64,000 nucleotides of DNA, from positions 31,047,880 to 31,111,879 of the forward strand of contig OZ026600.1 of NCBI GenBank assembly GCA_964020085.1, given 5' to 3'. Origin of the DNA: Micromussa lordhowensis. Its lineage: Eukaryota; Cnidaria; Anthozoa; Scleractinia; Lobophylliidae. Each line of letters begins with the position of its first letter. Within the stretch, counting starts at the first letter, position 1. Of this stretch, positions 26,466 through 44,995 are shown piece by piece. The translations under genes were made by a program, and so were the position numbers. Below the pieces are notes generated by a model. That model was given only the letters and a program-made list of their open reading frames with translations. It had not been told where the DNA came from and did no database searches.

Positions 26466-26471
26466 ATTGCC
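26466..26471. repeat. Polinton target-site duplication, left (attgcc)
   Basis: Hexamer attgcc directly before the left terminus. It is repeated exactly at 44990-44995 directly after the right terminus. Six-bp duplications are the rule for Mavericks/Polintons. Confidence 0.95.
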
Positions 26472-26937
26472 AGTAGTTATATAGTTGGGGGTATGAGCGC
26501 ATTTTTCAGCGCAGATTTCAAATACTAAATTCAGACCACTTTTCTAAATCTATGTTGAAACACAGAAGCCAAGGTCAAACAAAACCCAAGGTCAAATATG
26601 AAATTAAATAAATAGATTAATCCTTTAACCAATACTGAAAAAATAAAAATTTAAACTAAAGATATAAACAATACTAAAACACAGAAGCAAAGGTCAAATC
26701 TTATCAGCTTATTCAGTCGGCTTATTCAGTCGGCTGAATCAAATCAATTTTCATACCTAGGTTATGTCTGGAAAGATAGACAAAAATAATTATATTTTTG
26801 GCTACCCAATAGATAGCGAATTACAGCATATTTTTGCTGTATTTATCAACACAAACTTAATTGTATTTCTCTACAATATATATTTAGATAAAAATCAAAT
26901 TCTTAATTCAGTCGGCTTTCTCTGTCGGCTGAATCAA
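26472..26937. repeat. Polinton left terminal inverted repeat (466 bp)
   Basis: Reverse complement of 44526-44989 with only a few differences: a 2-nt A-run indel near 26640 and scattered substitutions. Copies of the octamer cagtcggc (as in ttcagtcggcttattcagtcggctgaatc) form sub-terminal repeats near 26712-26745 and 26909-26930. A 58-codon open frame inside each TIR is identical apart from one residue, but this is expected of the repeat and I do not call it a gene. Confidence 0.97.
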
Positions 26938-26970
26938 ACATTAAATATCTATCATATTATTATAAAGTTG

Positions 26971-27294
26971 ATGTTATTAGATATAAACAATCCCAATGTT
27001 GTTATAAAAGTTATTTCATGGAATAATAGGAAGAAAATTACTAAAATTTATGGACTTATATCGTATTTTAATGAAAAAATACTGAGGAAGATTTCTCGCG
27101 AACTTGGCAGAAGATGTGCAGCAGGAGCTTGTGTTGTTGATACTGATAAAAATAAGAAAGATAATCTGTTAAAAATAAAAAAAACTGAGGAAAAAATAAT
27201 CCAGATCCAGGGAGATAATGTAGATGTTATGATAGAGTATTTACTTGAAATTGGAATTCCTGAGGAAAAAATAAAATCAAATAATTACATATGA
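26971..27294 (+). CDS. eIF1/SUI1-like translation initiation factor
   Basis: A 107-aa protein starting at the ATG at 26971; the open frame extends further upstream into the TIR, but homology starts here. It has the SUI1 fold pattern: a first strand VVIKVISWNNRKKITKIYGL, a helix ending KISRELGRRC, a short strand AAGACVV, then the diagnostic IIQIQGDNVDVMIEYLLEIG and IPEEKI. The [IV]IQ[IL]QGD signature followed by an L-x2-IG(I/L) helix is typical of eIF1, which monitors start-codon selection on the 40S ribosome. Some giant viruses carry SUI1 homologues. In a Polinton it could tune translation of viral mRNAs with very short leaders. Function is inferred; host capture of eIF1 is the likely origin. 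Confidence 0.72.
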   Translation: MLLDINNPNVVIKVISWNNRKKITKIYGLISYFNEKILRKISRELGRRCAAGACVVDTDKNKKDNLLKIKKTEEKIIQIQGDNVDVMIEYLLEIGIPEEKIKSNNYI

Positions 27295-27644
27295 AAATTA
27301 AATCTATTATTAATATATATATGGAATCATTCATTGGAATAACAGACTTCAAACTAACACAAATTTTAAATGATATTTTGGAAATTGAAAAACATCATGT
27401 GAAGAAAATTGAAAAAAATGAAATGAATAAAATAACAAATGTGACTTGGTCTCCAAAATTTATTTGTTATGATATGTATTGTGAGGGAAAACGAAAAATC
27501 AAACACCATGAATGTCGTATTTGCAGACGGATTGTATTACATCTTCTTGGTGATATAGGATCTCATCTTCGTTGGTGTTTAAAATGTAATGGTTTTTTTG
27601 AAGTTCCATCTTGGTATTTTTATGACCATAAGCATAACTTTTAA
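27291..27644 (+). CDS. Doubtful ORF following eIF1-like gene
   Basis: A 117-codon frame whose ATG overlaps the eIF1-like stop (ATGA). Its second half (27499-27644) lies antisense to the 3' end of the polymerase gene and includes Cys residues (HHECRICRR, WCLKC). The AT-rich first half has no recognisable motif. It could be a small viral gene convergent with PolB or a shadow of it. I do not assign a function. Confidence 0.25.
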   Translation: MKIKSIINIYMESFIGITDFKLTQILNDILEIEKHHVKKIEKNEMNKITNVTWSPKFICYDMYCEGKRKIKHHECRICRRIVLHLLGDIGSHLRWCLKCNGFFEVPSWYFYDHKHNF

Positions 27645-30600
27645 TTCCATCTTCATGAATGTATCTCTTATCATCAAAACAGCTGAGTGACACTTTATTT
27701 ATCTCATAACTACCTAACTGGTGATTTTCACTTCTGATTGTTTTCATTTTGTGACTCATTTGTTCAGCATTGAAAAGTGTATTTTTATAGTTTCCATGTG
27801 TAATGTCTTTTTTGATAATATTCTTTTTTATTCCTTTCGCAGTCTTTCCACATTTTTGATCGTCTTTCGTGTAGCTGTACATTTTTGATCTTAATCCAAC
27901 GAATTCAATAATTGGAACACCAGCTGCTTCATCTTTAAATTTTCCAATTACTTTTTTATTTTTTTTGTCAAAGAATGGTGAGTATTCATGATAGTCACTA
28001 TTGTCAAATTTATCTATGTCTTTGAAGAAATCACTATAAACATCTTTTGCTTCAATCTCATATGTCAAGCTGTCAGTGTCTGTGAATAATAATTTTGCTT
28101 TTTCTCCATATTTGTGTTTGATATAATTATAATGAAAATCATTCATCAATGTCTTACTAAGATCTAAGATACACATTCCTACATATGCTGGCCTATTTAG
28201 AGTAAGTGTTTCTTTTATCTTATGAACAGCCACTAGATTTTCATTAAAGATCTTACTACTGATATAAGTTGGTTTGCTTGCTAACTTTGTTAACTTCTTC
28301 TTATCAGTCACTAATCTTACATCAACTCTTTTTCTTATATTTTCCATTGTCTTGCCAAATACACTGTTATTCATTAATTTGAAAAAATCTTTTTCAAAAG
28401 CATTTTTAGCATTCTTTCTTTTTTCTGTATTGAAGTCAATATATTGTTTTAGCCATGGTGATTGATTGAACTTTAGAACTCTGTGAACTTTAGTCACTTT
28501 CAAACCAAGATCAATATATAGTTGTAAGTCCCTATAATGAAGAACATATTTTTCTTTATTACTCAATGTTGGAATTAGCTTGCTAACTAATCCTGTTGAT
28601 ATTCCATATTTCTCAGCAATTTGTTTACTATACTTAGATAGCATGTCTTCTGTTACTTTGACTTTTTCTGGTCCCAATGGATAATCATTATGTAAGTTAT
28701 GTAGTTCTTTTGGATATTCTAAATCAACTTCTTACTATCTTCTTTATATTTGCTGAGATCCAATTTATCAATATGTTCTTGCTTCATCCATTTAAATCCA
28801 CCAGTTGGTAAATATTGACTCATAGCCCAACCATATAGATTATTAGCATCAAGATACATGATATACTTTGAGGGCGCCTTCTCATCATATGATTTCATGT
28901 ATTTATTGTTTGCTTTACCATAACGATTGGCTATATAACTGATACCACCACGAAGTCCTTTTTCAATGAATTGGAACATATCAATATCAGTCATCAATTC
29001 TAATTTGATATCAGTCATCTTCAACATAGCATCCCAAGATAAACCAGGTGATGTGAAATAATGACAAGGATCTAATTTATAATACTCAAGACATGTCTTT
29101 CTGAAGTTTTCAAATACATCAACCAAAAGAAGTATATCTGATTGTAAGTACAAATCATGGTAATCACCCATATTATTCATTGAAAATGTTTTCCAAACTT
29201 TTTGAGCATGATTATAATCTTCATCTGATATATGTTCATCATTTAATAAACTATAAAATTAATCTTTGGTTGGCAAAACAGTATCTTCAAACTTATCAAA
29301 ACTGTCCATATAGTCATAAGGATAAATACCTTTTCTTATCATCAAATCAAACTTATCACCTTTGAATCGCCGTGAGGTATACTTTAATGATTCTCTTGGA
29401 AGATTACTTACAAGTTTTTCAAGACTTGAACTCATAAATTGGAAACTGTCAAGAAATGTAAGATGATTACCCAACATGAAAGCCATATACTTTTCCATAT
29501 TGTTTGGGATTGCATTTATGTTCATTTGACATTTTTCACCTTTTTTGTTTTTATATTCATAATCTTTAACAATAGCTCCAATCTCTTGCATAATAAAATG
29601 ACTGTCATAACCTCTAAGATTATGAAATATAACAGGTATTTTTATTTTTTCTAGATTTAATCTAATTTGTAGATTGCATTCTTGATGTGCTGAGCCTCTA
29701 TATTTACCTGTGATATGACAATGGTCTCGAACTCTAATATCTTCATTTTTATTACAAATGTAACATTCTTCAGCTTTCTTAAATTTTTCTTCATCTTTCT
29801 TTGTCATTTTCAAAGGTTTGTTGAATTCTTTTTTCATTACTTTCTTGCAATATTTTACTTCATCTAACATATATTCCAAGAATGTATAAACAGCTTTTTC
29901 TCCTCTGTAAATTTTCAACGGTTGACTATATTTATCATCATAACAACATACAACTTTATAACCAAATCCACAGTCAGTATGCTTTTGATAAGCATTAGTG
30001 TATGATTGATTATTATCTGGTTGACAATTGGATATTTTTTCTGTTATAGCTTCAAAATCAGCATAGATCACAAACGGCACTTGTTGTTGTTTATGAAAGT
30101 TGTTATATTTCAATGTATTGTTGCCCTTCTCTGGCATTTTTACTGCTTGTGTTCCATTTAATGCAATACAATTATCTTTATGATTATTCAATACTTTTTC
30201 AGAGCTGAAACATTGAAGACAAAACATACAGAAGTGCTTGCTTTCCTTATGTTTTGTTTTATTGTACATGAATCTGTTGAAATCTTTAATCAGAACATAA
30301 TGCTTATTTTCATTTTCAGTTATTAATAATAGTTCCATATGATCATCATATTTTTCTTTTGAAACATAGATTGGATATGGTTGTTTATTTTCATAACCGA
30401 ATACATTGATGTTGATCTCATTTTGCTTTTCAATTTTATTATACTGCTTTGTTGTAACCGGAAAATCAATTCCAGAGTAATCTAAATTATTAACATATTG
30501 TTTGTCAACTTTTTTAATTCGTTGTGGATCCTTATCTTGAGGATTCAAATGTCTGATATGACACCATCTGAAGCATTCATTATCTTCATTTTTCATATTG

Positions 30601-31735
30601 ATCAATCCCTTTCGATGATGTCTGAGTTCTTGTGGTAGTTTGATATATGATGATCCTTTCATTGGTTCATATTGTACAACATTAATATAATGATTGTCAA
30701 CTGATTCAACAGTCCAACCAGAACCTTCAGATATCCATTGAGCTACTAAGCTCAATATTTATTGTTCTGATAATTGTAGTGATCCATAGATTTCTGTATT
30801 GTTTATAATAATTTGTGGTTTGCTATTGAAATATGCTGATTTATGAATTATTTCTTCACCTGACATTTTTGCAAATGTTACCTTGAGTGTTTCAACTGCT
30901 TTTAAACCTTTCTTTGATTCAATAATATTTTTGCTATGATACTCAATAGCATTTCTAGTGTTTGTCAACTGTTCTAAGGGATCTTTGTTGTTTTTGATGC
31001 TGATTTCAAAAGACTTAGTATAACCCTTCATTGCTTGTGCTTTTTCTTCAATTTTAGTTCTCAATAATGGAACTGGTTTCTTAGTCCTCGGTTTTGGTGT
31101 TGGTTTGTAATCATCTCTGAATTCCAATACATCATACATCACTTTTCTTTACCCTCGGATTTTAAGAGTAGCTTATGCAGCTAATTTCTCCGAGCATTTA
31201 ACCATTAGATGAGAGATAGACCACCACACCGGGAACTACGTCCCCTACTCTTTTCGAACAGTGTGTGGGTTCTTTTACGTCCCACAGAATTAATTATGAA
31301 GAGTTGTGAAACGGGGCCTACGGTTTATCGTCCTTATCCGAGAAGACTAGAAAGTCTAACCATTTGCAGATGTCATTACAAAGGCCGCACTTTCTCCTCA
31401 GTTATTTAAAGACCCTGAGTGTTGGTCCGGCCGGGGTTTGAACCCGCGACCTCCCGCACGCTAGTCCGGAACTCTACCTACTGAGCTAACCGGTCGACGG
31501 TGGTGGTTCAATTATGTTGTCTTCATAATCTTGTACCATCTGCTTCACACTCTTACGAGGGGCTGGGATTGGTTTTTTTTGTTATTGGAGTTGGGATTGG
31601 TTGTTGTTGCATATTTTGCTGTAACAACTTTTGTATTTCCAAATTCTGTTTGATCAGCAAGTTGATTAATTGAGATTTATCGAGATGTTTGAAATCACGC
31701 TTGTTCATATTATTAGTTGAGATTAAATTTTCCAT
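27499..31735 (-). pseudogene. polB: Protein-primed type-B DNA polymerase (PolB), broken
   Basis: It would replicate the Polinton. Landmarks in order are an N-terminal SKSQL-type region (31735), exonuclease I VIYADFEAI (about 30060), Exo II HNLRGYDSHF (about 29620), Exo III DLYLQSDILLL (about 29140), motif A YLDANNLYGWAM (about 28850), motif B LMNNSVFGKTMENIRKR (about 28360) and motif C FTDTDSLTY (about 28080). Lesions are a +1 frameshift at an A-run near 31575, a SINE inserted at about 31146-31499, in-frame TAA at 30759-30761 and 29259-29261, and a -1 frameshift near 28725. All catalytic motifs are individually preserved, so decay is recent. An AT-rich TATATAATGG motif sits at the original start. 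Confidence 0.93.
31146..31499 (-). mobile_element. tRNA-derived SINE inserted in PolB
   Basis: Read on the minus strand, it starts with a tRNA-like head (about 31495-31424) with an A box TTAGCTCAGTAGGTAGAG and B box GGTTCAAACCC. The anticodon arm cannot form a normal 7-nt loop, so it is tRNA-derived and not a tRNA gene. A conserved-looking central body follows (for example gtgggacgtaaaagaacccac). It ends in a tail (aaatccgagggtaaa) that resembles the LINE 3' tail at 21291-21345, as expected for a SINE mobilised by that LINE. It splits the N-terminal linker of the polymerase. A clear target duplication was not found by eye. Confidence 0.8.
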
Positions 31736-31846
31736 TATATAATATTACTATATATTATTTTATTCTTAAGTATTATATAGCGCGTTTAAAAATGTTAATA
31801 ATAAAAGACTTTTTAATTTCTGATTATTAATTGATGTGTGATTTTA

Positions 31847-32047
31847 TTATGTTTTTTTATTATTTGCGGCTTGTTCATTTTTGATAGGTTTTTTTGTTTT
31901 GAGATGGCTCCATTTTCCAGCTAATGAGTAATCTTTGTTTCCACATATGGAACATTTCCACTCTTTATTTAACATATACTTGGTTTTAATTGGTTTGTGT
32001 GCTTGCTTTCTTTCTTCTTCACTTAAATATTTTTTTGGTCTTCCCAT
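31847..32047 (-). CDS. Small basic zinc-finger-like protein with AT-hook-like start
   Basis: A 66-aa protein beginning MGRPKKYLSEEER (GRPKK resembles an AT hook) with a single finger-like motif WKCSICGNKDYSLAGKWSHL. C32 and C35 are followed by H48. The position of the expected second His reads KKPIKN where I would expect H, so the zinc site may be incomplete. Small proteins of this type recur in cnidarian Polintons; the role is unknown, with nucleic-acid binding inferred. A TATATAATGGG motif lies at the start. A second, partial finger of similar layout is on the plus strand at 32494-32637. Confidence 0.6.
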   Translation of the reverse strand: MGRPKKYLSEEERKQAHKPIKTKYMLNKEWKCSICGNKDYSLAGKWSHLKTKKPIKNEQAANNKKT

Positions 32048-32074
32048 TATATATACTATATATGAAATTTTTTT

Positions 32075-32461
32075 TTAAGTGATTATATTGTAATCGATGT
32101 TGGGTAAATCTAATAATTTTGAAGCAATATCAGACATTTTGTTTTTGCATGCCCATATTAATGCTGTTTCTCCATTTTCATCTGTTTTATTGTAATCAAT
32201 GTTGGGTGAATCTAATAATTTTGAAGCGACATCATTCATTTTGTTTCGACATGCCCATATTAATGCTGTTTCTCCATTTTCATCTGTTTTATTACAATCG
32301 AGATTTGGTGAATCTAATAATTTTAAAGCAATATCAGACATTTTGTTTTTACATACCCATATTAATGCCATTTCTGCTATTAATGCAATTTCTGCATTTC
32401 CATCTATTTTATATGAATATTTTGTGAAATTTGTTGATGTTTCATTGTGGTTGATTTCCAT
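32075..32461 (-). CDS. Ankyrin-repeat protein
   Basis: 128 aa with three consecutive ~34-residue ankyrin repeats of the pattern NGETALIWAC(K/R)NKM(S/N)D(I/V)ASKLLDSPN(I/L)D. The repeats are nearly identical at the DNA level (period 102 bp), so they expanded recently. The first repeat is degenerate (AEMALIWVCKNK). Ankyrin proteins are common accessory genes of large DNA viruses and Polinton-like elements, where they bind host proteins. The specific partner cannot be inferred. A TATA-rich leader abuts the ATG. Confidence 0.8.
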   Translation of the reverse strand: MEINHNETSTNFTKYSYKIDGNAEIALIAEMALIWVCKNKMSDIALKLLDSPNLDCNKTDENGETALIWACRNKMNDVASKLLDSPNIDYNKTDENGETALIWACKNKMSDIASKLLDLPNIDYNIIT

Positions 32462-32493
32462 ATTGTTTATATTATATTATATTAATTTATTTA

Positions 32494-32637
32494 ACTGAAG
32501 TTTCAGATGAAGACAAAAAGAAACATTTACAAGACTGGCGAAACAAAGAATTCACATGTCCAAATTGTGACAAATTGATTAAGAATGATGATAAATATAA
32601 GCACAAGAAGCATTGCAAAAATAGCCAGAAACAATAA
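32494..32637 (+). pseudogene. 3' fragment of a zinc-finger gene
   Basis: A plus-strand frame without start reads KKKHLQDWRNKEFTCPNC, then HKKHC, and ends in TAA at 32635. C-x2-C plus H-x3-C forms one finger, similar in layout to the 31847-32047 protein. It has no ATG and the upstream sequence is AT-rich spacer, so it is probably the tail of a related gene displaced by rearrangement. Confidence 0.45.
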
Positions 32638-32664
32638 TATTTTTGGCCATCATTAAAACAGCAA

Positions 32665-32752
32665 ATATGCAACTTATATTGTATTATCTTACAATATAAA
32701 TTACATAAAATATACAACTTATATTGTATTATCTTACAATATAAATTACATA
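32665..32752. repeat. Tandem hairpin repeat between convergent genes
   Basis: Two copies of acttatattgtattatcttacaatataaattacataa in tandem (about 32668 and 32709). Each contains the inverted pair ttatattgta/tacaatataa (with a short loop), giving two identical hairpins next to the integrase 3' end. A transcription termination or RNA 3'-end role is possible. Confidence 0.65.
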
Positions 32753-32771
32753 ACAAACGCTTAAATCATTT

Positions 32772-33740
32772 TCATGTATTTACCAAATCTTTCATTGGCA
32801 TCCAGCTATTGAATTCATCACCATATCCCTTCCACTTTACCAAAGCTTGTTTCTTCTTATGATCCCTACGAATGACCTTATCAATTCGGAATACATCTTG
32901 TTTGGCTTTTAATAATTCAGGTTCATAGAAACTCCCTTCTATAGTCTCATCATTTAGATCCTTTATTTTGTATGTTATTGGATTAGTGTATTGAATCTTA
33001 TCAACTGTAAATACTTCTTCAGTCCAATTTGGTGTATAACCCTTGTCGAACACATTCCTTTTGTACTTAGATATTCGGACCTTATCACCTATTTTAAATT
33101 TTGGCTTCTGCTTTGATGTTTTAATATCACCATATAGATTAAAGTAAACAGTTCCCTCATTCTTCTTTTTACTGGCTTCCATAGGTGTCATCTTAATGCT
33201 TGAATGTTTTGTGTTGTTGTACTGATTTACTAGTTTGGGGAGCATATCGAGATACATTGTATTACCTTGAACGGTGAACTGCTTCCACATTTTAGATTTA
33301 ATTGTTCTATTCCATCTTTCAACTACTGATGACTTCTCTTCATTCTCAGTTGAGTACAATATTATGTTATTCTTCTCTAATAAGTCCTTCACATGTTTGT
33401 TGTAATATTCTTTACCTTTATCAACCCATAAATACTGTGGTTTTCTACCTTCCTTGAATATTGTTTTGAATGCTTCAGTGACAGATTCACCTTTCTTATC
33501 CTTCAATGGAACAATCCAACCATATTTGCTGAAGACATCAATCACCATTAGAAGATATCTATAACCTTTATTCCATTTACTGAACTGTTGCATTTCAACT
33601 AGATCACTTGCCCATATTTCATCAATATGATTTGTGATTACACGCCGTCGAGTAAAGTTACGCTTTATGGGTGAATGTAATTCATCTGCTAATTTTTCTT
33701 GCCAGTTTTCTTCACCCGACGGCTTTTTACGTTTTTTGAC
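32772..33740 (-). CDS. int: Retroviral-type integrase with C-terminal chromodomain
   Basis: Inserts the element and makes the 6-bp target duplication. The DDE core is WASDLVEM (first Asp codon at 33603-33605), LWVDKGKEY (Asp 58 from the internal Met) and SSVVERWNR (Glu 92), followed by YNNTKHSSIKMTPMEAS. A chromodomain-like end (VIRRDHKKKQALVKWKGY, then SWMPMKDL) closes the protein. The first ATG (33593) lies after the first catalytic Asp, so it cannot be the real start. The frame stays open upstream to 33740 without any ATG and overlaps the PLA2 gene in the -1 frame. I infer expression as a -1 frameshift product of PLA2, or loss of the start. Confidence 0.93.
   Translation of the reverse strand, partial: VKKRKKPSGEENWQEKLADELHSPIKRNFTRRRVITNHIDEIWASDLVEMQQFSKWNKGYRYLLMVIDVFSKYGWIVPLKDKKGESVTEAFKTIFKEGRKPQYLWVDKGKEYYNKHVKDLLEKNNIILYSTENEEKSSVVERWNRTIKSKMWKQFTVQGNTMYLDMLPKLVNQYNNTKHSSIKMTPMEASKKKNEGTVYFNLYGDIKTSKQKPKFKIGDKVRISKYKRNVFDKGYTPNWTEEVFTVDKIQYTNPITYKIKDLNDETIEGSFYEPELLKAKQDVFRIDKVIRRDHKKKQALVKWKGYGDEFNSWMPMKDLVNT
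33644..33737 (-). promoter_or_regulatory. Candidate -1 ribosomal frameshift signal, PLA2 to integrase
   Basis: On the minus strand, the PLA2 frame reads TCA AAA AAC, placing the canonical slippery heptamer A_AAA_AAC in phase (33737-33731). After a 7-nt spacer (gtaaaaa) comes GCCGTCG (33723-33717), perfectly complementary to CGACGGC (33650-33644). Directly inside it GGTGAA (33716-33711) pairs with TTCACC (33675-33670). A -1 slip here enters exactly the integrase frame, which has no ATG. Confidence 0.6.
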
Positions 33741-34493
33741 TTAGCACCCATACCTAATTTTGACTTAGCTGCTATAGCATTGCGAGCTATTGTATGTCCC
33801 CATTGTCTTTCTTTCCAAGGAATAGCATCAAGAGACTTAACCATTTTACGATCTGCATCATTCTTGCATTTTACTTGGTTACTTTTTGGTTTGTTTCCAC
33901 AAACTGAGTAATCAACATCATGCTGCATACTTACTGCATCTGTTTTACCTGTTGGCTGTTGATATATCTCAAGTATCTGACCAGTATTTGGATCATACCT
34001 CAGTTGCTGTTCGAGAGGATTACCAGGACCTGTATATCTATGTCCAGGCATCACAAAACCTTTCTTTGGCGCAACTTTTAATATAGCCTTACGTATATCT
34101 ATTCCAGATCCTAGTTTTTTGGATAAATCTGATGTTAAACTGTCCAAAGCTTGATCCAAATATTTGTTCGCAACATTTTTTATTTTCTTTTTTGCATAAT
34201 CTGATTTGATGGCTTTTGCAACACCTTTTTTAGCAAAGTAAGCCCCAGTGTTTGCCAAACCTTTCAAAGCAATCTCACCGAGAGAATGAGAGTCATGAAT
34301 ATTGAATAAATTGCCCCCAGCTTGTGAGGGCTCAATCAGTTTCCCTGATTCTTAACAAGTTTGGTCTTTGTTATCCCACATTCAGCACAAGTGCATTTCA
34401 TCATGGTTCGACCATTTTTAGCTTTAACATATCTTTCACTCCCTGGAACACATTCGGTTTGTTTTTTTGTTTTACGCAATATGATTTTACCAT
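33689..34493 (-). pseudogene. Phospholipase A2-domain virion protein (parvovirus VP1u-like), frameshifted N-terminus
   Basis: The 34267-33689 frame carries the secreted-PLA2 signature used by parvoviruses for endosome escape: the calcium loop YTGPGNPL and the catalytic helix MQHDVDYSVC (His and Asp adjacent). A basic C-terminus follows. The gene probably starts at the ATG at 34493 (MVKSYCVK, after a TATATA motif) with a zinc-ribbon-like segment (KCTCAECGITKTK). To connect these parts two -1 shifts are needed, at CAA AAA AAC (about 34465) and CAG GGA AAC directly before a TGA (about 34350). Single-base losses or recoding could explain them. Membrane penetration during entry is inferred from the family. 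Confidence 0.8.
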
Positions 34494-34505
34494 TATATAT
34501 GTAAG

Positions 34506-35081
34506 TTAGATATTTTTGAAATAATTGATGATGAATTTAGGATTGACACTTGTATCTGACATATCGAATTTACAATTGTGGATTGTTTCGAGAATGGATC
34601 TTCCCTTCTGTCTTTCCAACAGATAGTATAAACACCAATAACCACACAATACTGAATCACGTTCTTGTATCTCATCTGTTGAATATACCAATTGTTTTCC
34701 ACTTGTTGCCATATATTTCTTAACCTCAAGTGGCATTTTTAATCCAAAGGAGTCAAAGTATTCACAAAATCTGTCAATGTTTCTGTAACATACCCAATGT
34801 GTGCCAGGTCCAATATGATCATCAAGATTGATTATTCCACATTCTTTGTTTTTGATTTGTTTTGGTAAAACATCCTTGCTAAAAACACCTCTGAAGTATT
34901 TTATCCCAAGTTGTTTCACCCAATTTTTCAAATCATAGTTGGATAATGGTTTATTTACAAAATGGCTCCAACCAATGGAATGTTGTTGAATGGACTGTTT
35001 GGACCTAGCAGAAGACCTTTTCCCTTTCTCTTTTTTTTGGTGGGCTTTTTTTTTATCCCATAACCGATTGGATTGTTCCAA
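34506..35081 (-). CDS. pro: Adenovirus-type cysteine protease (PRO)
   Basis: Processes virion precursors. Catalytic elements in the open frame are GTHWVCYRN (His 95), CEYFDSFG (Asp 110), IQERDSVLCGYWCLYY (Gln about 139, Cys 146), in the adenain/Ulp1 order H-D-Q-C. The 191-residue open frame has no ATG before the catalytic His; it opens right after a TAG at 35082. It overlaps the pX-like gene by 127 nt in the -1 frame, across two in-phase slippery A-runs (35031-35054). I infer expression as a -1 frameshift fusion to the pX-like protein, which would also package the protease. A lost start codon is the alternative. Confidence 0.92.
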   Translation of the reverse strand: MEQSNRLWDKKKAHQKKEKGKRSSARSKQSIQQHSIGWSHFVNKPLSNYDLKNWVKQLGIKYFRGVFSKDVLPKQIKNKECGIINLDDHIGPGTHWVCYRNIDRFCEYFDSFGLKMPLEVKKYMATSGKQLVYSTDEIQERDSVLCGYWCLYYLLERQKGRSILETIHNCKFDMSDTSVNPKFIINYFKNI

Positions 35082-35806
35082 CTACCGAAAAAAGGTGGTG
35101 ATTGATGTGGCATCAACATCATTGAACTGTTTTTACCTTTACCCTTTGTTGGAGGAACATATACAGGAATTGATCTTTTTGGTCTTGATTTCTCAACATG
35201 CAAACCACTTCCAGTCAAAGCTTTCAAAACCATAGGAATCCCAATACTTGCAAGTAAAGTACCAAGGAAACCACCTGATTGTTTCAATGTTGGTTTCACA
35301 AAAACACTTGAACCTGATTGAAGAGCAGCAACTATTTCTTCTTTCTGTTTCTTTGATAGAAGATGTTTGTTTGCGATTAGTTTATCAATCTTATTCTGTG
35401 GTATGAGAAAACCACCTTTTTGTTTTCCAAATATTTTATCAATACCAAGACTTCCAAGAGCTGATAATGCTCCTGTTGCTAATGCTGGTACTGCTTTGGA
35501 TACAGCTGTGGTTGCATATGGTAATAGTTTTGTACCAAGAGAGAACAAACTGCTCCACAAAGAACCACCTTCAATGACCGCCTTTCTGATTTGTGTTTTG
35601 TATATCTTGATGTCTGATCCATTTCCCAAGCTTTTGGCTTTCTTCAATTTCATGATTTGTCTATTGGTTAACATAAGCTGGTCACTTCCGCTTAACTCAT
35701 CATTACTCAATCTGATGGTAATGGCTGAATTATCTCTGTAAGCTTTTGCTAGCTTTTGCCTCTGTCCTGTTGATAGTTTTACTCCGTGTGGATGATAAGT
35801 TGTCAT
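34955..35806 (-). CDS. pX/pVI-like virion precursor protein
   Basis: 283 aa, conserved in position between MCP and protease in Polintons. It starts at the ATG after tatatatATGAC. Seen: a soluble N-terminus; an adenain-like site VIEGG|S after residue 81; a hydrophobic, Ala/Leu-rich membrane-active-looking stretch (about 82-125, LWSSLFSLGTKLLPY, ALATGALSALGSLG); Gly-Gly segments KQKGGF and KQSGGFLGTLL; and a very basic C-terminus (KKKPTKKKRKGKG). This resembles adenovirus core or membrane-lytic precursors that are cut by the viral protease. The C-terminal Lys run carries the slippery sites feeding the protease frame. Confidence 0.7.
   Translation of the reverse strand: MTTYHPHGVKLSTGQRQKLAKAYRDNSAITIRLSNDELSGSDQLMLTNRQIMKLKKAKSLGNGSDIKIYKTQIRKAVIEGGSLWSSLFSLGTKLLPYATTAVSKAVPALATGALSALGSLGIDKIFGKQKGGFLIPQNKIDKLIANKHLLSKKQKEEIVAALQSGSSVFVKPTLKQSGGFLGTLLASIGIPMVLKALTGSGLHVEKSRPKRSIPVYVPPTKGKGKNSSMMLMPHQSPPFFGSWNNPIGYGIKKKPTKKKRKGKGLLLGPNSPFNNIPLVGAIL
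35031..35054 (-). promoter_or_regulatory. Candidate -1 frameshift site, pX-like to protease
   Basis: In the pX frame the codons ATA AAA AAA AAG (A-run 35054-35046) contain A_AAA_AAA and A_AAA_AAG, and ACC AAA AAA AAG (35038-35031) contains a further A_AAA_AAG, all in phase. A -1 slip enters the protease frame, which lacks an ATG. I saw no downstream stem as convincing as at the integrase junction. Confidence 0.5.
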
Positions 35807-35870
35807 ATATATATAATAGGTTATATAAATATGATCATTAATTGAATATGATTTATGAATTGATGAATGA

Positions 35871-37157
35871 TTACATAGACCTCAGGATTAATTTCCCATC
35901 AGTCTTTCTCATTTCAACATCCTGTTCATAAAGGACAAGTGCATAAACCGAGTATGGAGCATTGGTAGCATCGCCTAGTGTATATTTGAAAGTCAGTTTG
36001 GTCATGCCATCTTTGATATCTGTTTGTTGCTTTGTTAAATCAAAGTAAATAAATGAAAAAATGCCACCAAAGTTCGTCCTGTTAATGAGAGTATCACCAG
36101 CATAATCACTGTTAGCATGAACATACCTCAAAACATCTTGGAATACACGTGTTGGTTCCTCATTTGGTTTGTAATGAACTTCTGGATATTCTTTTCCATT
36201 TCCCACTTCGAGATAGCAACTAATTAATTTCTTATCGTCAACTACGTTGAAAGTGTTATATAAGAATTTATTAACAGTTTGTGTTTCAAGATCAGCATCA
36301 TTGAGAATAAAAACAAAAACGTGTCTTGGTTTGTTAATTGATGTTGAAATACGGAAGTTGGCCGACTGCTGTTGTGTTGAATTACCTCTCTCAACCAATT
36401 CACGAAGATAGGTCCACTTTCTTGTATCAAGATATTCTTTCATGTACAATGACTTTCCATCTGCATTGAAAACAATACGAGGGACTATCAACTGAAATTT
36501 AGTAAGGACCACACGACAATCAGCTCCACCTGCCCGCCAGGCAATGTTGTTGTCACTCTCAAGATCGATTCTTATCTCAATTCGAGAATTTGGAAGAAGT
36601 TCACCATGAAGGCTTTCAAAAAAGCCATACCGATTGAGTGGTATTTCTGCATTAAATGTGGCACCACCATTCAGAAGAAGTTTTCTGGCGGCGAAACCTG
36701 AATTGTAATTGGCTTGAGCTTTTCTATTTTCAGCAAATCTGGTTGTGTCAATGTAAAATAATTCATTGGTACCTTGACTTTTTGAATAACCTTGTGAATA
36801 TTCCAGAAGATTTTTTATGTTTGTTGCTTGGTTAGCATCCGTACAATCATAAACATCAACACCATTCATCTTGACATTCAATTTTTTGATAAGAGCGGAG
36901 GCAGAATTGACTATCCCCATCTGATCAGCAGCTGCGACATTAGCTCCAGCTGCCTTCTGTTCCAACGTAATATTCATATTGAATCTGGCGTGATACCAAT
37001 CAAAAGGGGTTGATTCTCCACTATTGTCGACAACAAAACGATGATTATTTTTTGTTTGAGAAGCATTGTTTGCAGGATTTACATTCAATGCTGTTTCAAG
37101 TTCAATAACAACATCTTCATACCTTTCTATAAGCTTTGATTTTCGATAATTTGTCAT
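35871..37157 (-). CDS. mcp: Major capsid protein (double jelly roll)
   Basis: An intact 428-aa frame with a TATAATATATG start. Conserved Polinton MCP landmarks are STPFDWYHARFNM near residue 50, IPLNRYGFFESLHGELLPNS (about 172-191), the following RIEIRIDL, YLDTRKWTYL (about 240), KPRHVFVF and FTYTLGD-like FKYTLGD near the end. Length and strand-rich composition fit the double-jelly-roll capsid proteins of Polintons, adintoviruses and virophages that build a T-number icosahedral shell. No stop or frameshift is visible. Preservation of this gene alongside a broken polymerase argues for late decay of the element. Confidence 0.92.
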   Translation of the reverse strand: MTNYRKSKLIERYEDVVIELETALNVNPANNASQTKNNHRFVVDNSGESTPFDWYHARFNMNITLEQKAAGANVAAADQMGIVNSASALIKKLNVKMNGVDVYDCTDANQATNIKNLLEYSQGYSKSQGTNELFYIDTTRFAENRKAQANYNSGFAARKLLLNGGATFNAEIPLNRYGFFESLHGELLPNSRIEIRIDLESDNNIAWRAGGADCRVVLTKFQLIVPRIVFNADGKSLYMKEYLDTRKWTYLRELVERGNSTQQQSANFRISTSINKPRHVFVFILNDADLETQTVNKFLYNTFNVVDDKKLISCYLEVGNGKEYPEVHYKPNEEPTRVFQDVLRYVHANSDYAGDTLINRTNFGGIFSFIYFDLTKQQTDIKDGMTKLTFKYTLGDATNAPYSVYALVLYEQDVEMRKTDGKLILRSM

Positions 37158-37168
37158 ATATTATATGT

Positions 37169-37549
37169 TTAGATAAAATTCCTTCTTCTAAGTTTTCCAC
37201 CTGAAAGTATCTGATTTACTCTATCATTTACCTCCTGAGCAGTTAATTGTTTTGGTGGGATTGATATATCTGGTTCCATCTGAACTAATGGGTTTTTTGT
37301 TTTACTCTTACTTAGAAGCTCAACTATCTTATCACCAGCCTTCTTGCCAGCATATTCACCAGTTGTTGTAGCCGCCTTTTTTAATGCACTCTTTGCTGCA
37401 CTTTTGGCTGCTTTCTTTGCAGTTCTTCCAAAGATTTTCCTTCCAACTGCTTTTAAGACATCAGTTATGCCTTCACCATCAATATGTTTTGTCAAATACA
37501 TATCTGTATCTGGATCAAAACGTTTTTTAAATTCACACTGTCTGATCAT
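37169..37549 (-). CDS. Small basic virion-like protein with adenain-like site
   Basis: 126 aa between the two capsid genes. It has an Ala/Lys-rich helix (TAKKAAKSAAKSALKKAA), GEYAGKKAGDKIVELL, and a C-terminal LSGG|K motif (cut after residue 118) followed by a basic LRRRNF tail. The helix looks amphipathic or DNA-binding. No known family is recognised. Its place in the capsid cluster, its TATAATATATG leader and the processing-like motif suggest a minor core or scaffold protein. Confidence 0.65.
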   Translation of the reverse strand: MIRQCEFKKRFDPDTDMYLTKHIDGEGITDVLKAVGRKIFGRTAKKAAKSAAKSALKKAATTTGEYAGKKAGDKIVELLSKSKTKNPLVQMEPDISIPPKQLTAQEVNDRVNQILSGGKLRRRNFI

Positions 37550-37565
37550 ATATTATAATATTATA

Positions 37566-38351
37566 CTAAATCTCTGTTGATCGAACAAACAGTTCAATGT
37601 ACCAATCTATCCCATTCAAATCAATTGGACTCCCAGATGAATCAGTAACATAAAAACGCATTGAAGATATTAAATGACCTGATACTGGACTATATGCGAG
37701 AAAACGAGGTTTGTAGGTGAATGGAAGGGATCTGGTAAGATTTTCAACGGGAATAACAGCCACTGTGCTAGAAGATTGACCATCAGTGATGCTGTCTGTT
37801 ACTCTATCACAGTTGATTTGTATTTCATCTACTCCTCTTGTGATATCAGGGAGATTTGTTCCATACTCCGTCTTTTCAATCTTTTTTGAATCAAATCCAA
37901 TCAGTTTTCTGAAATCTAAGTTTGTGAGATCTACTTGATAATCACCTTTCAATTCAATAAGCACTCGATATGTTGATAAAATAAAATGTATATCGATACC
38001 ATACTCATCTATTCCATTATTATCAGCAGCCTTCTTAACAAGATCTCCATTGTCTTTCATAGCCTTTTTAATGTATTCATCAATGTCATCATAACTGTAC
38101 ATACCATCAACAAATATGATTGTTTTCCAATTTGCTCCTTTATCAGGACTGTATTTAATTTGATTATTACCATATGATTGTCTGATGTTATACCAGCTGT
38201 ATGTCATTGATATTGTTCTTACAGCTAGCTCATGCTTCATGTCATAAGATAGTTTAATAGGCTCATTGAATTTAGTTGTGAAATCATGACTAAGACTTAC
38301 ACCTGACTTTTGTCTATTTTTTGATTTAAAACGCAACAAGAATTCACTCAT
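37566..38351 (-). CDS. Minor capsid protein (penton-like, single jelly roll)
   Basis: An intact 261-aa frame. Polinton minor capsid hallmarks are the N-terminal SEFLLRFKSKNR, KLSYDMKHELAVRTISMTYS, the central LIGFDSKKIEKTEYG and C-terminal IDWYIELFVRS. The family forms the pentameric vertices of the capsid. It lies directly upstream of the small basic gene and MCP on the same strand. Its ATG is abutted by an AT motif (attaatatATGAG). Confidence 0.85.
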   Translation of the reverse strand: MSEFLLRFKSKNRQKSGVSLSHDFTTKFNEPIKLSYDMKHELAVRTISMTYSWYNIRQSYGNNQIKYSPDKGANWKTIIFVDGMYSYDDIDEYIKKAMKDNGDLVKKAADNNGIDEYGIDIHFILSTYRVLIELKGDYQVDLTNLDFRKLIGFDSKKIEKTEYGTNLPDITRGVDEIQINCDRVTDSITDGQSSSTVAVIPVENLTRSLPFTYKPRFLAYSPVSGHLISSMRFYVTDSSGSPIDLNGIDWYIELFVRSTEI

Positions 38352-38383
38352 ATATTAATAGATTAGATATTTTTTATATATAT

Positions 38384-39505
38384 TTATAATAAATATTCTT
38401 TCATGAGATCATTCATTTGTTTGTTGTCTATAACATTCAATTTATTCAATCTGTGTACTATATTAACAAACTCTTCTCTGACAGCATTACTGTTGTTTCC
38501 AGCAGACATAGACCCTCCAAGTAGCTCCAACCGTGAAAGTAAATCTTGTGGATTGTTGTAATATACTACACCACTTCCAAGTTTTGAATACTTCTTAGAT
38601 GTTCTGTGTATTGGTATTTGACTTAGTCTGTTGAGGTCATTGAAAACAGTTCTTGCTAGTTCAGAGTAGTTCTTTCTGCTGTTGAATCGTTTTGTTAGAA
38701 GATCAAGTGTGTCAAAGTCAGCTTGTTTATCATACACCTTTTGACCGTTTTTATGAGCCACAACTTTCAGATGTCCATACAGTTTTGGAAGATCAATGAC
38801 CAGACCACCATACTGTCCTTTTTGTGATATCTTATAGGCGTTTCTTTTTTTCTGTGTATAGAGGCCTGTACCAATATGTGATACATATTTTAATGAAGCT
38901 AGTAAATCATCGATTGTTCCTCTGTATTTCTTCAGAGTTTGTAGTTCTATGTCATAAGATTTTTTGTCTTCATCTGATGTATTTTTCTGTCCTTTTTTTC
39001 TTCCAATTGTTTTAGCTAGTTCTGCAGCTTTTATTTTCTCTTCCGATAGTTTTTGTGGGAGCATTTGTGTCAATTCCCCCGGTTTTGATAGTTTGTAATT
39101 ATTTAATATAATTCTGTCGGTTTTGTTGAAATTGTTGTCAATATTAAGTATTGAAGGCTCTTGTTTTGCTTCAGGAAGTTCATCTTTTAATTCGATTGCT
39201 TTAGGAAGTTCATCTTTTAATACGATTGCTCTCAGATTTGTTTCTGTAAATTTGTTGATTCCTTCTGCTAAATCCTCTTGGTTTTTCTGTAATTGTTCAA
39301 TGACTTTATCCTGTTTTTCATCAACACTTTCTTTGATTGACTTCTGAACATCAATAGTGGGTTTAAATATTTCTGAGGTATCATCATACATATCCTGTTT
39401 TTGTGTTTTATAAGTCTTGACGACTTCGCGGACTGCTTTCACCTTATTTCCAGCTTTAATTCCACTGGTAATAAGTTTTTTCATTCGTTCAATGTCCATA
39501 TACAT
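38384..39505 (-). CDS. Conserved Polinton virion-associated protein, unknown function
   Basis: About 373 aa from the first true ATG (39505); another in-frame ATG is at 39499. The N-terminal half is Lys/Glu-rich and probably coiled-coil (for example DEKQDKVIEQLQKNQEDLAEG). It includes an imperfect repeat LKDELP. The C-terminal half is more ordered (GGLVIDLPKLYGHLKVVAHK) and ends with an adenain-like site ELLGG|S, about 42 residues from the end. It sits at the edge of the capsid cluster, divergent from the ATPase. Similar proteins occur at this place in cnidarian Polintons; I know no function for them. Confidence 0.65.
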   Translation of the reverse strand: MYMDIERMKKLITSGIKAGNKVKAVREVVKTYKTQKQDMYDDTSEIFKPTIDVQKSIKESVDEKQDKVIEQLQKNQEDLAEGINKFTETNLRAIVLKDELPKAIELKDELPEAKQEPSILNIDNNFNKTDRIILNNYKLSKPGELTQMLPQKLSEEKIKAAELAKTIGRKKGQKNTSDEDKKSYDIELQTLKKYRGTIDDLLASLKYVSHIGTGLYTQKKRNAYKISQKGQYGGLVIDLPKLYGHLKVVAHKNGQKVYDKQADFDTLDLLTKRFNSRKNYSELARTVFNDLNRLSQIPIHRTSKKYSKLGSGVVYYNNPQDLLSRLELLGGSMSAGNNSNAVREEFVNIVHRLNKLNVIDNKQMNDLMKEYLL

Positions 39506-39603
39506 ATACACTATATAAAATGACTTATCTCAACTTATCTCAACTTATCTCAACTTATCTCAACTTATCTCAACTCATCTCAACTTATCCAAACTTATTA
39601 TAT
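39506..39603. promoter_or_regulatory. Divergent promoter region with 10-bp tandem repeat
   Basis: The 98-bp gap between the minus-strand capsid cluster and the plus-strand ATPase cluster contains about seven copies of atctcaactt (39534-39597). An AT motif lies at each end: ttatatagtgtat on the left and cttattatatATGG on the right. A bidirectional control region is inferred. Confidence 0.6.
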
Positions 39604-40245
39604 ATGGAAATACCAAACTATGATAGCGGTGAAACATTAGAAAACGGTTTCAAACAATTACATGAATACATGCCGAAAAACACATTCAGGATGCTTTTAG
39701 CTGGTAATTCAGGATCGGGTAAAACGAATCTATTGAGTCATATTTTACAATCTCCATTGATCTATTATGATCAGATCCATTTGTATGCCAAAAATCTAGA
39801 TCAGGATAAGTACACAAATTTAATTGACAAGATGAATGGAGTAAGTGAACATGTTGGTTACCCAGTTTTGATAGCAAGCAATGATGAAATAATACCTGTC
39901 GACCAGCTGCAAGATACTGATATGCAAAGAGTTGTTATATTTGATGATTATGTATGTGAAAAAGTACAGAAACCTCTGATAGACTATTTCATTCAAGGTC
40001 GGCATAAAAACTGCTCTGTGATATATCTCACACAATCCTTTTACGGATGCCCTAAAGCAATCAGATTGAATTGTAGCCATTTCTGTTTGTACGATTTTCC
40101 ATCCTCAAGAGAAAGAAATTTGATATCTCAAGAATTAGGAATCGATAAAGAAAAATACATCAAGGCAACCAATAAACCATACTCCTTCTGCTATGTAGAC
40201 AAACCAATGAAAACAGTGAAGAGAAACTTTTATGGAAATATATAA
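39604..40245 (+). CDS. FtsK/HerA-family genome packaging ATPase
   Basis: 213 aa from the ATG that follows ttattatatATGG. The frame is open 28 codons further upstream through the 10-bp repeat, which I exclude. Walker A is AGNSGSGKTN (residues 33-42). Walker B is RVVIFDDY (about 109-116), followed by IQGRHKNCSVIYLTQSF, the sensor-like segment typical of A32-type packaging ATPases. Ends FYGNI. The protein pumps DNA into the capsid in Polintons, virophages and NCLDVs. The frame is intact and the next gene starts 11 bp downstream. Confidence 0.95.
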   Translation: MEIPNYDSGETLENGFKQLHEYMPKNTFRMLLAGNSGSGKTNLLSHILQSPLIYYDQIHLYAKNLDQDKYTNLIDKMNGVSEHVGYPVLIASNDEIIPVDQLQDTDMQRVVIFDDYVCEKVQKPLIDYFIQGRHKNCSVIYLTQSFYGCPKAIRLNCSHFCLYDFPSSRERNLISQELGIDKEKYIKATNKPYSFCYVDKPMKTVKRNFYGNI

Positions 40246-40256
40246 TATACTTGTAT

Positions 40257-43103: not shown

Positions 43104-43124
43104 ATTAAAACATAACACATATAT

Positions 43125-43602
43125 ATGAAAGAGCCACGAAAGAGTATATTCAACTGGAACCATATTTCAGATGAACTAACAAACGAACAGATCGATGAAT
43201 TAAAATCTTACTACCATACATATCACAAAAAGTGTTGGGCGTACAAACAAAAATCGAAACACCTCAAAAAATTGAAACTATTAGGCAACTCATTGTCTAT
43301 CATATTTGCATCCGGAGGTTTCGCTAGCAGTCTAGCAACTGGCGGTATTAGTTTGATAGCCATCAGTACAGCAGCACTTTTGATTCAGGGTTGGATGAAG
43401 CATAAAGACCTTGATCTTAAGATCATATGCTTATCAAAGTTATCAGCATTTATTAAATGAAATAAAAGACATTATGAGAAGTGGAGAGTTCAATCCATAT
43501 CACATTTACAATACAATGAAAAACATAGATGATTATGTGACAGACAACAGTCCTATTGTTGACAAATATTTGATAAAATACGATGAAAAATTCATACGTT
43601 AA
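43125..43602 (+). pseudogene. Two-helix membrane protein, frameshifted
   Basis: The first frame (43125-43460) has a basic N-terminus and a hydrophobic double segment (LLGNSLSIIFASGGFAS, then LATGGISLIAISTAALLI), followed by WMKHKDLDLKI. From about 43420 the expected continuation is in another frame to 43602 (YQSYQHLLNEIKDIM, then NPYHIYNTM). Single-frame proteins with these two parts occur in cnidarian Polintons, so a one-base indel near 43415-43435 is inferred. A small viral membrane or holin-like protein is possible. The function is unknown. Confidence 0.6.
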
Positions 43603-44152
43603 CCATCGACTGAATTCTATCACCTATCAATGATTGAATCTTTTCCCAATATTGTTCATAAGATTTTAATGTCCTCTTCGACTTCGTTACATTGATATCT
43701 TTGTAAGGAAGCCCAAGCATCTTGAATAATTGTTTGATAATATATTTGATACTCATAATACGTTTGCGTCCATCACCAACTTTGTGTAAAACACTGTCCA
43801 TCTCAATGAATACCTTGTGGATACACTTTCTCTGGTGGTAAGTTAATTGAATATTATTCTTACTTGATATACTATCCAACACATTCTCAATATGGTATTT
43901 CCGATGATATATTGATTTTCGTCGTATCCTATACAAATTTTCATGGAAGTCAAAGTATGGTGTGAAATATTCACAACTATGAACTAAGCCACAATTAATA
44001 CAAACATTCATACCATTCACAGTTTTCATATCTTCTTCACTACAACATAACTCAGCCGCTTTGTTAACTTCTGCTAATAGTTCATCACAGAAAGGACATA
44101 TCGGCTCCATCATATTTTTCAATTCATTATGGATTACAGAATCACAATTCAT
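43592..44152 (-). CDS. VLTF3-like late transcription factor
   Basis: 186 aa with a zinc-ribbon-like N-terminus (CPFCDELL, C19/C22; NVCINCGLVH, C51/C54). A helical domain follows, with RRKSIYHRKYHIENVLD, a central LTYHQRKCIHKVFIEM and MSIKYIIKQLFKMLGLPYK. The spacing of Y-x-R-x-x-H-x5-L and the later helix pair match the Pox_VLTF3/A2L-like late transcription factors of NCLDVs and some Polinton-like viruses. It overlaps the membrane-protein gene tail-to-tail by 11 bp. It may drive the late AT-motif promoters seen at most genes of the element (inference). Confidence 0.72.
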   Translation of the reverse strand: MNCDSVIHNELKNMMEPICPFCDELLAEVNKAAELCCSEEDMKTVNGMNVCINCGLVHSCEYFTPYFDFHENLYRIRRKSIYHRKYHIENVLDSISSKNNIQLTYHQRKCIHKVFIEMDSVLHKVGDGRKRIMSIKYIIKQLFKMLGLPYKDINVTKSKRTLKSYEQYWEKIQSLIGDRIQSMVNV

Positions 44153-44525: not shown

Positions 44526-44989
44526 TTGATTCAGCCGACAGAGAAAGCCGACTGAATTAAGAATTTGATTTTTATCTAAATATATATTGTAGAGAAATAC
44601 AATTAAGTTTGTGTTGATAAATACAGTAAAAATATGCTGTAATTCGCTATCTATTGGGTAGCCAAAAATATAATTATTTTTGTCTATCTTTCCAGACATA
44701 ACCTAGGTATGAAAATTGATTTGATTCAGCCGACTGAATAAGCCGACTGAATAAGCTGATAAGATTTGACCTTTGCTTCTGTGTTTTAGTATTGTTTATA
44801 TCTTTAGTTTAAATTTTTATTTTCAGTATTGGTTAAAGGATTAATCTATTTATTTAATTTCATATTTGACCTTGGGTTTTGTTTGACCTTGGCTTCTGTG
44901 TTTCAATATAGATTTAGAAAAGTGGTCTGAATTTAGTATTTGAAATCTGCGCTGAAAAATGCGCTCATACCCCCAACTATATAACTACT
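44526..44989. repeat. Polinton right terminal inverted repeat (464 bp)
   Basis: Inverted copy of 26472-26937. It ends ...gggtatatagttgg-type reversed as ccaactatataactact at 44989, followed by the target duplication. Only a handful of differences from the left TIR are visible. Confidence 0.97.
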
Positions 44990-44995
44990 ATTGCC
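44990..44995. repeat. Polinton target-site duplication, right (attgcc)
   Basis: Exact repeat of 26466-26471. Together they mark the insertion point inside the LINE endonuclease codons. Confidence 0.95.

What the first reader, a model, noticed from the sequence alone, without database searches (positions are those of the whole stretch)
33644..33740. Retrovirus-style -1 frameshift signal joining PLA2 and integrase in a Polinton
The integrase has no ATG before its first catalytic Asp (codon 33603-33605), and its open frame overlaps the PLA2 gene in the -1 frame. In the overlap the PLA2 frame reads TCA AAA AAC, the canonical slippery heptamer A_AAA_AAC in phase. Seven nucleotides later starts a nested stem: GCCGTCG with CGACGGC (7 bp perfect) and, directly inside, GGTGAA with TTCACC (6 bp). 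Slippage enters precisely the integrase frame. Slippery site, spacing and stem make a complete recoding signal. I know of no report of this in Mavericks.
Basis: partly seen in the sequence, partly recalled or inferred. Interest (0 to 1): 0.85.

Follow-up and report, generated by a model that had tools for sequence, protein, structure and literature searches.

The report
Two retrovirus-like frameshifts in a Polinton
A virus-like jumping gene, probably in a coral genome, appears to make its integrase by having ribosomes slip back one letter at two successive sites, a trick best known from retroviruses and not found for this kind of element in the papers we could search.

Summary
Among 93 copies in the same genome, 89 keep the heptamer exactly, 91 the spacer, and 88 form at least 13 of 14 pairs. 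The codon phase of shared variation switches at the heptamer. Relatives hold DUF5679-PLA2-integrase in one ORF; a sister clade has an A-tract before its start-less integrase. Best reading: tandem programmed -1 frameshifting, arranged like gag-pro-pol. Against: no expression data, one genome's DNA, this copy is decaying, a few copies are fused or have an ATG, and two-sided stem changes do not exceed slid controls.

The parts
26472..26937 (.). left terminal inverted repeat of the Polinton
   Evidence: arms 26472-26647 and 26640-26937 are 98-100% complementary to 44526-44989
44526..44989 (.). right terminal inverted repeat
26466..26471 (.). target-site duplication ATTGCC, left copy
   Evidence: flanks printed
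44990..44995 (.). target-site duplication ATTGCC, right copy
   Evidence: flanks printed
34336..34493 (-). ORF1, DUF5679 zinc ribbon, start ATG to stop TGA; in this copy the ATG and the zinc-ribbon end lie in different frames (frameshifted), intact copies exist
   Evidence: DUF5679 E 2.2e-5 for the ORF1 of copy L012 (24.9 bits, curated cutoff 27)
34339..34345 (-). slip site 1, G_GGA_AAC in ORF1 phase, followed at once by the ORF1 stop
   Evidence: exact in 80 of 83 placed copies, stop next in 82 of 83
34332..34338 (-). 7-nt spacer of slip site 1 (holds the ORF1 stop)
34325..34331 (-). 5' arm of the 7-bp hairpin after slip site 1 (5-nt loop)
   Evidence: its columns are unchanged in at least 81 of 83 copies
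34313..34319 (-). 3' arm of the 7-bp hairpin after slip site 1
   Evidence: its columns are unchanged in at least 81 of 83 copies
33689..34345 (-). PLA2 frame (-1 to ORF1), no ATG before the PLA2 domain, ends at TAG 33691-33689
33731..33737 (-). slip site 2, A_AAA_AAC in PLA2 phase
   Evidence: exact in 89 of 93 copies
33724..33730 (-). 7-nt spacer of slip site 2
   Evidence: 7 nt in 91 of 93 copies
33710..33723 (-). 5' arm of the 14-bp stem after slip site 2
33644..33657 (-). 3' arm of the 14-bp stem after slip site 2 (52-nt loop)
32772..33740 (-). integrase frame (-1 to PLA2): rve core and chromodomain, no ATG before the first catalytic Asp

Best explanation
The element makes one DUF5679-PLA2-integrase polyprotein by two successive programmed -1 ribosomal frameshifts. 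Ribosomes start at the ORF1 ATG. Most stop at the TGA/TAA right after G_GGA_AAC. A fraction slips -1 there, helped by the 7-bp hairpin 7 nt downstream, and reads PLA2 to its TAG. A fraction of those slips -1 again at A_AAA_AAC, helped by the 14-bp stem 7 nt downstream, and reads the integrase. The result is falling amounts of ORF1, ORF1-PLA2 and ORF1-PLA2-integrase, as in a gag-pro-pol gene. Shown by sequence: frames, missing starts, heptamers, spacers, stems, their conservation, purifying selection on both start-less frames, relatives with the domains in one frame. Inferred: that slippage happens, its efficiency, and that fusion to PLA2 (a likely virion protein) carries a small dose of integrase into particles.
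For: Site 2: 89/93 heptamers exact and 91/93 spacers of 7 nt; 69/93 form all 14 pairs and 88/93 at least 13; columns 18/89 are T-G 43, C-G 32, T-A 17, C-A 0, one gapped; over 63 distinct rows 97% of cells pair against 30-50% for slid controls. Phase switch: shared variants fall at PLA2 third positions just upstream (13 of 20, against 5 and 1 at positions 1 and 2) and at integrase third positions after the PLA2 stop (11 of 34, against 2 and 1), with 3/14, 2/14, 3/14 in the dual-coding overlap. Wider, PLA2 has 54/100 third against 12 and 7, integrase 52/100 third against 21 and 11: both start-less frames are under selection. Site 1: GGGAAAC exact in 80/83, next codon a stop in 82/83, although the ORF1 module upstream differs between copies; the shared variable columns between heptamer and hairpin end (8, 13, 22) lie in spacer or loop. 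75 of 83 copies keep GGGAAAC plus stop, AAAAAAC and at least 12 of 14 stem pairs together. Database relatives P0010 and P0049 carry all three domains; 12 of 120 clusters listed, these two among them, do (my count). 107 of 120 PLA2 clusters end in the same zero-frame tail past the slip site.
Against: No RNA, ribosome profiling or protein data. This copy is decaying: ORF1 is frameshifted and the PolB region has in-frame stops and a frame break. The copies are one genome's family, so they are not independent. In 13 of 93 copies the integrase frame is closed or out of phase after the first heptamer match. 4 of 93 copies are one-frame fusions and 4 of 93 unfused ones have an in-frame ATG upstream; 7 of 83 have an ATG in the PLA2 frame upstream of site 1; 13 of 120 integrase clusters may start inside PLA2. 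Shared changes at stem column 25 (8 copies) and column 17 (4 copies, 3 unpaired) break pairs. The site-1 hairpin is not improbable given its codons (P 0.074) and its region's fold z-scores are -0.8 and -1.0. A 52-nt loop is long for a stimulatory hairpin. The sister clade has an A-tract at the junction instead of a fixed heptamer; I did not search there for a stem.
Confidence: 0.82

Rival explanations
1. Chance frame breaks: the real gene is one ORF, and this element is a decaying copy with small indels at A- and G-runs.
For: PolB and ORF1 of this copy are broken. Fused single-frame relatives exist, and 4 of 93 copies here are fused.
Against: The same -1 relation, heptamers, spacers and stems recur in most of 93 copies, and the zero-frame tails past the slip sites are kept. 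Decay would not place both phase switches at canonical heptamers with 7-nt spacers.
Confidence: 0.05
2. Independent initiation: PLA2 and integrase start at internal ATG or near-cognate codons, by own promoters, leaky scanning or reinitiation.
For: 4 of 93 unfused copies have an ATG in the integrase frame and 7 of 83 in the PLA2 frame; 13 of 120 protein clusters may start inside PLA2.
Against: In 44 of 93 copies the integrase frame is closed by a stop that begins 6 nt upstream of the heptamer, and in further ones somewhat higher up. The CUG that overlaps the ORF1 stop reads CUA in 24 of 83 copies. Integrase-frame constraint begins at the heptamer.
Confidence: 0.06
3. Transcriptional slippage at the A-run changes the mRNA frame.
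For: The sister clade carries 7-22 A at the same junction, with frame relations close to random: fused 13, -1 20, +1 21 of 54.
Against: In this clade the run is 6 A followed by C, and site 1 has only 3 A, both within canonical ribosomal heptamers followed by conserved stems.
Confidence: 0.04
4. Splicing joins the frames through a small intron.
For: The window has GTAAAA right after the heptamer, which resembles a donor site.
Against: The second base of that GT is T 46, G 30, C 14, A 2 among the copies, so the GT is not kept.
Confidence: 0.01

Closest known systems
gag-pro-pol of betaretroviruses and deltaretroviruses (recalled, no call)
   Same: Two successive -1 sites, with the heptamer types G_GGA_AAC and A_AAA_AAC and a downstream stem or pseudoknot; the last product carries a DDE integrase and no start codon of its own.
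   Different: The proteins joined are DUF5679, PLA2 and a chromodomain integrase of a DNA element with PolB, a packaging ATPase and inverted repeats; no gag or reverse transcriptase seen in the cassette; the second loop is 52 nt.
IS3/IS1-type bacterial insertion sequences (recalled, no call)
   Same: A DDE/rve transposase made by -1 slippage on an A-rich heptamer.
   Different: Bacterial, a single site, a different first ORF, no PLA2.
Maverick/Polinton PLA2 (CAP) and INT ORFs, e.g. Sf Maverick 1 and 2 (PMC5803895, passages read)
   Same: PLA2 and chromodomain integrase proteins in the same class of element.
   Different: In the passages read they are separate ORFs, and the word frameshift appears only for errantiviruses.
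Hypothetical slippery site in adintovirus Penton genes (PMC11071296, passages read)
   Same: A -1 frameshift proposed in a related group of elements.
   Different: It concerns the Penton 3' end, was predicted by KnotInFrame and called hypothetical there; not PLA2 or integrase.

Membership tests
programmed -1 ribosomal frameshift signal | X_XXY_YYZ heptamer in zero-frame phase | tested here: met
   site 2 exact in 89/93, site 1 in 80/83 placed copies
programmed -1 ribosomal frameshift signal | spacer of about 5-9 nt, then a stem or pseudoknot | tested here: met
   7 nt at both sites; 14-bp and 7-bp stems. Pseudoknot: a 6-bp loop contact is possible, inconclusive
programmed -1 ribosomal frameshift signal | downstream frame lacks a start codon and is under selection | tested here: met
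   with the minority exceptions stated
programmed -1 ribosomal frameshift signal | stem supported by compensatory changes beyond controls | tested here: inconclusive
   paired cells 97% against 30-50% slid, 13 extra pair types against 3-10, but pairs with two-sided changes 2 against 0-2
programmed -1 ribosomal frameshift signal | measured frameshifting or fusion product | not testable with these tools
   no expression data
Maverick/Polinton | long terminal inverted repeats and 6-bp target duplication | tested here: met
   about 466-nt repeats, ATTGCC
Maverick/Polinton | PolB, rve integrase, A32-like ATPase | tested here: met
   PF03175 3.2e-9, rve 2.9e-10, Pox_A32 5.2e-15
Maverick/Polinton | adenovirus-type protease | tested here: inconclusive
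   PF00770 E 0.0079, 16.3 bits against a cutoff of 21.3
Maverick/Polinton | major capsid protein | tested here: inconclusive
   ORF 35871-37160 has no Pfam match
retrovirus gag-pro-pol | gag and reverse transcriptase in the frameshift cassette, LTRs | tested here: not met
   Pfam finds DUF5679, PLA2 and rve-chromo there and the element ends in inverted repeats; it works like gag-pro-pol but is not one

The most novel reading that the evidence does not exclude
A DNA transposon/virus lineage evolved, independently of retroviruses, a gag-pro-pol-like tandem -1 frameshift cassette that ties integrase dose to a PLA2 capsid-associated protein, so that integrase is packaged as a rare fusion. The site-1 cassette tolerates swapping of the module upstream, and the sister clade solves the same problem with a slippage-prone A-tract.
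Probability: 0.5. Interest if true: 0.92.

Novelty: new variant of a known kind. Interest (0 to 1): 0.84.

Why it matters
It would be a case of retrovirus-style recoding, and of two sites in a row, in a eukaryotic DNA transposon or virus. It suggests how Polintons could control integrase dose and bring integrase into particles, which bears on whether they form infectious virions. Gene finders that expect an ATG or a single frame will call these genes broken, so copies counted as dead may not be.

Tried and rejected
Protein scans of viral contigs and of genome contigs found no relatives. A junction pattern hit two viral contigs (L001, L002); neither encodes a PLA2 or integrase relative by tblastn, so they are taken as chance. 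A loop-downstream pseudoknot was sought: one 6-bp contact in 96% of copies, in conserved codons, and another in 84%, inconclusive. A first codon-usage table had an ORF slice out of frame and was redone. Splicing, near-cognate starts and simple decay were considered and rejected as above. A possible third -1 overlap (capsid-like ORF into protease) was seen but not settled.

Novelty searches, all ten in the held PMC library: Polinton + frameshift (41 papers, 20 listed, passages opened in 3 of them), adintovirus + integrase + PLA2 (none), Polinton + ribosomal frameshifting (1), Maverick + integrase + ribosomal frameshift (1), adintovirus + frameshift (11, 10 listed), DNA transposon + programmed ribosomal frameshifting + transposase + eukaryot (2), Polinton + phospholipase A2 + integrase (3), ribosomal frameshifting + double-stranded DNA virus + eukaryotic + capsid + slippery (none), Polinton + slippery (1), adenovirus + Maverick + frameshifting + gag-pol (none). 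Passages only were read in PMC11071296, PMC8097293, PMC12567637, PMC3671162 and PMC5803895; other papers were seen as listings. Most subscription papers are not held. Statements on retroviruses and insertion sequences are recalled.

Full report
Setting. The finding lies on the minus strand of a Polinton at 26472-44989, with inverted terminal repeats of about 466 nt and a 6-bp target duplication ATTGCC. It encodes PolB, a Pox_A32-like ATPase, an rve-chromo integrase, a PLA2 protein and a weakly matching adenovirus-type protease. The window's genome is held unnamed, 580.8 Mb. The named protein relatives in the listings come from the corals Oculina patagonica and Stylophora pistillata, so a stony coral is the likely host (inference).

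The reported site. The PLA2 ORF (33689-34351) and the integrase ORF (32772-33740) overlap by 52 nt, the integrase in -1 phase. The PLA2 frame reads TCA AAA AAC. After a 7-nt spacer the RNA folds into a continuous 14-bp stem with a 52-nt loop (z -3.4). It is the only one of 622 slippery heptamers in the window followed 4-10 nt later by a stem of at least 12 bp with at least 6 G-C pairs; 24 shuffled windows give 0.04 on average. The integrase codons in the 3' arm use the rare Arg codon CGG (4 of 108 Arg codons in eight slices of the element's ORFs), and 14 of 14 pairs has probability about 0.001 or less given the protein and the codon usage.

Relatives in the same genome. A DNA search found 508 candidate places, of which 40 were scored, and a motif search found 91. 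I analysed the junctions of 93 copies of this clade at distinct places, the window included; some are recent duplicates of each other. 89 of 93 keep AAAAAAC exactly; the other four are three point changes and one deletion. A script found the integrase in -1 phase to its first AAAAAAC match in 80 of 93; of the 9 out of phase, four come from an extra upstream A-run that the script met first (my reading of the printed contexts). In 13 of 93 the integrase frame is closed or out of phase after that match, as expected of decaying copies. The spacer is 7 nt in 91 of 93. All 14 pairs form in 69, and at least 13 in 88. Columns 18/89 are T-G 43, C-G 32, T-A 17 and C-A 0; columns 21/86, 24/83, 27/80 and 19/88 vary mainly between Watson-Crick and G-U. 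Exceptions are column 25, changed in 8 copies, and column 17, changed in 4 copies and unpaired in 3. Over 63 distinct rows, sliding the 3' arm by 1-3 columns drops paired cells from 97% to 30-50% and extra pair types from 13 to 3-10. Pairs with changes on both sides are 2, against 0-2 in the slid controls, so compensation is suggestive and no more.

Selection. In the 60 nt before the heptamer, sites with shared variants are 13/20 at PLA2 third positions against 5/20 and 1/20 at first and second. After the PLA2 stop (+49 to +150) they are 11/34 at integrase third positions against 2/34 and 1/34. Between, where both frames are read, it is 3/14, 2/14 and 3/14. The first base that varies freely after the heptamer (T 46, G 30, C 14, A 2) is the silent third position of an integrase Arg codon and a replacement site in PLA2. 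So the integrase frame is read from the heptamer on. That variability also removes the GT of a would-be splice donor.

No separate start in most copies. In the integrase frame 44 of 93 copies have a stop codon beginning 6 nt upstream of the heptamer, and others have one further up. Four copies are fused to PLA2 in one frame (L068, L070, L079, L086), and four unfused ones carry an upstream ATG (L073, L082, L112, and L092, which has lost the heptamer). Outside this genome, 31 of the 120 listed integrase clusters are PLA2 fusions, and 13 of 120 begin with MG at a place that is ATG GG inside PLA2 here (my count; their start codons were not seen). Among the 120 listed PLA2 clusters, 107 end in the same zero-frame tail past the slip site, which makes the split state the usual one in that listing.

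A second slip site. PLA2 itself has no ATG before its domain in the window. Directly upstream is a DUF5679 zinc-ribbon ORF (E 2.2e-5, 24.9 bits against a cutoff of 27, tested on copy L012) that ends in G_GGA_AAC and a stop. The PLA2 frame is the -1 frame. Of 83 copies where it could be placed (10 of 93 could not), 80 have GGGAAAC exactly and 82 have a stop next (TGA 58, TAA 24); 76 have no ATG in the PLA2 frame upstream. The module upstream differs between copies, zinc ribbon alone or other sequence, but the end is the same. A 7-nt spacer and a 7-bp hairpin with a 5-nt loop follow. The shared variable columns between the heptamer and the hairpin's end (8, 13, 22) are in spacer or loop; the stem columns are unchanged in at least 81 of 83. 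The hairpin alone is not improbable (P 0.074), and folds of the region in two copies have z -0.8 and -1.0, so site 1 rests on the heptamer, the adjoining stop, the frame and the conservation. 75 of 83 copies keep both sites together with at least 12 of 14 pairs of the second stem.

The joined product exists elsewhere. The database proteins P0010 and P0049 carry DUF5679, PLA2, rve and chromo, and 12 of 120 clusters listed, these two among them, carry all of these (my count of the Pfam column). In a sister clade of the same genome (integrase 64-66% identical to P0047; 54 copies among the 126 scored of 1578 candidates), DUF5679 and PLA2 share one frame from an ATG in 14 of 14 copies looked at, 13 of them without a stop. 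There the integrase is joined through a run of 7-22 A: 13 of 54 copies in frame, 20 in -1, 21 in +1, and none of the 41 unfused has an integrase ATG upstream. Twenty further junctions fetched from the groups showed the same A-tract. So three states of one polyprotein are seen: one ORF, ORF plus A-tract, and three ORFs with two heptamers. Whether a stem follows the A-tract was not tested.

Mechanism. The best reading is tandem -1 ribosomal frameshifting giving ORF1, ORF1-PLA2 and ORF1-PLA2-integrase in falling amounts. This is supported by anatomy and conservation, not by expression. That the fusion brings integrase into particles is inference from the parvovirus-like PLA2 and the retroviral parallel. 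The window copy itself is probably inactive: ORF1 is frameshifted, and by ORF layout PolB is cut by two in-frame stops and a frame change.

Known or new. -1 frameshifting, these heptamers and tandem use are known from retroviruses (recalled). In the ten searches listed, the nearest statement is a hypothetical slippery site in adintovirus Penton genes (PMC11071296, passages). I found no report of frameshifting for a Polinton PLA2 or integrase, in a library that lacks most subscription papers and with most listed papers not opened.

Noticed in passing
34506-35081 and 34955-35881, minus strand: The protease-like ORF has no Met before its HWVCY motif and overlaps the capsid-like ORF in -1 phase near A-rich runs. 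-1 in 8 of 8 placed sequences (39 tried, the window counted and also present as L003), but 2 of 8 have an in-frame ATG. A possible third recoding site, unsettled.
   Followed up: partly
L117-L190: Sister Polinton clade in the same genome with a homopolymer A-tract (7-22 A in 54 copies, longer in L190) between PLA2 and integrase and nearly random frame relation.
   Followed up: partly
upstream of slip site 1, e.g. L028, L033, L051, L066: Different N-terminal modules precede the same GGGAAAC-stop junction, as if modules were swapped at it.
   Followed up: partly
27499-31148, minus strand: By ORF layout, PolB of this copy is broken by two in-frame stops and a frame change.
   Followed up: no
40176-43103, plus strand: A collagen-like G-x-y stretch, a stop, then an 825-aa repetitive ORF that by eye looks like a fibre or tail protein.
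   Followed up: no
32075-32476, minus strand: Short ORF of ankyrin-like repeats (by eye) inside the element, next to the integrase.
   Followed up: no
43592-44167, minus strand: ORF that by eye resembles a TFIIB-type zinc-ribbon transcription factor, near the right inverted repeat.
   Followed up: no
23753-26476, minus strand: Endonuclease and reverse-transcriptase ORFs of a non-LTR retrotransposon (by eye) next to the left end of the Polinton.
   Followed up: no
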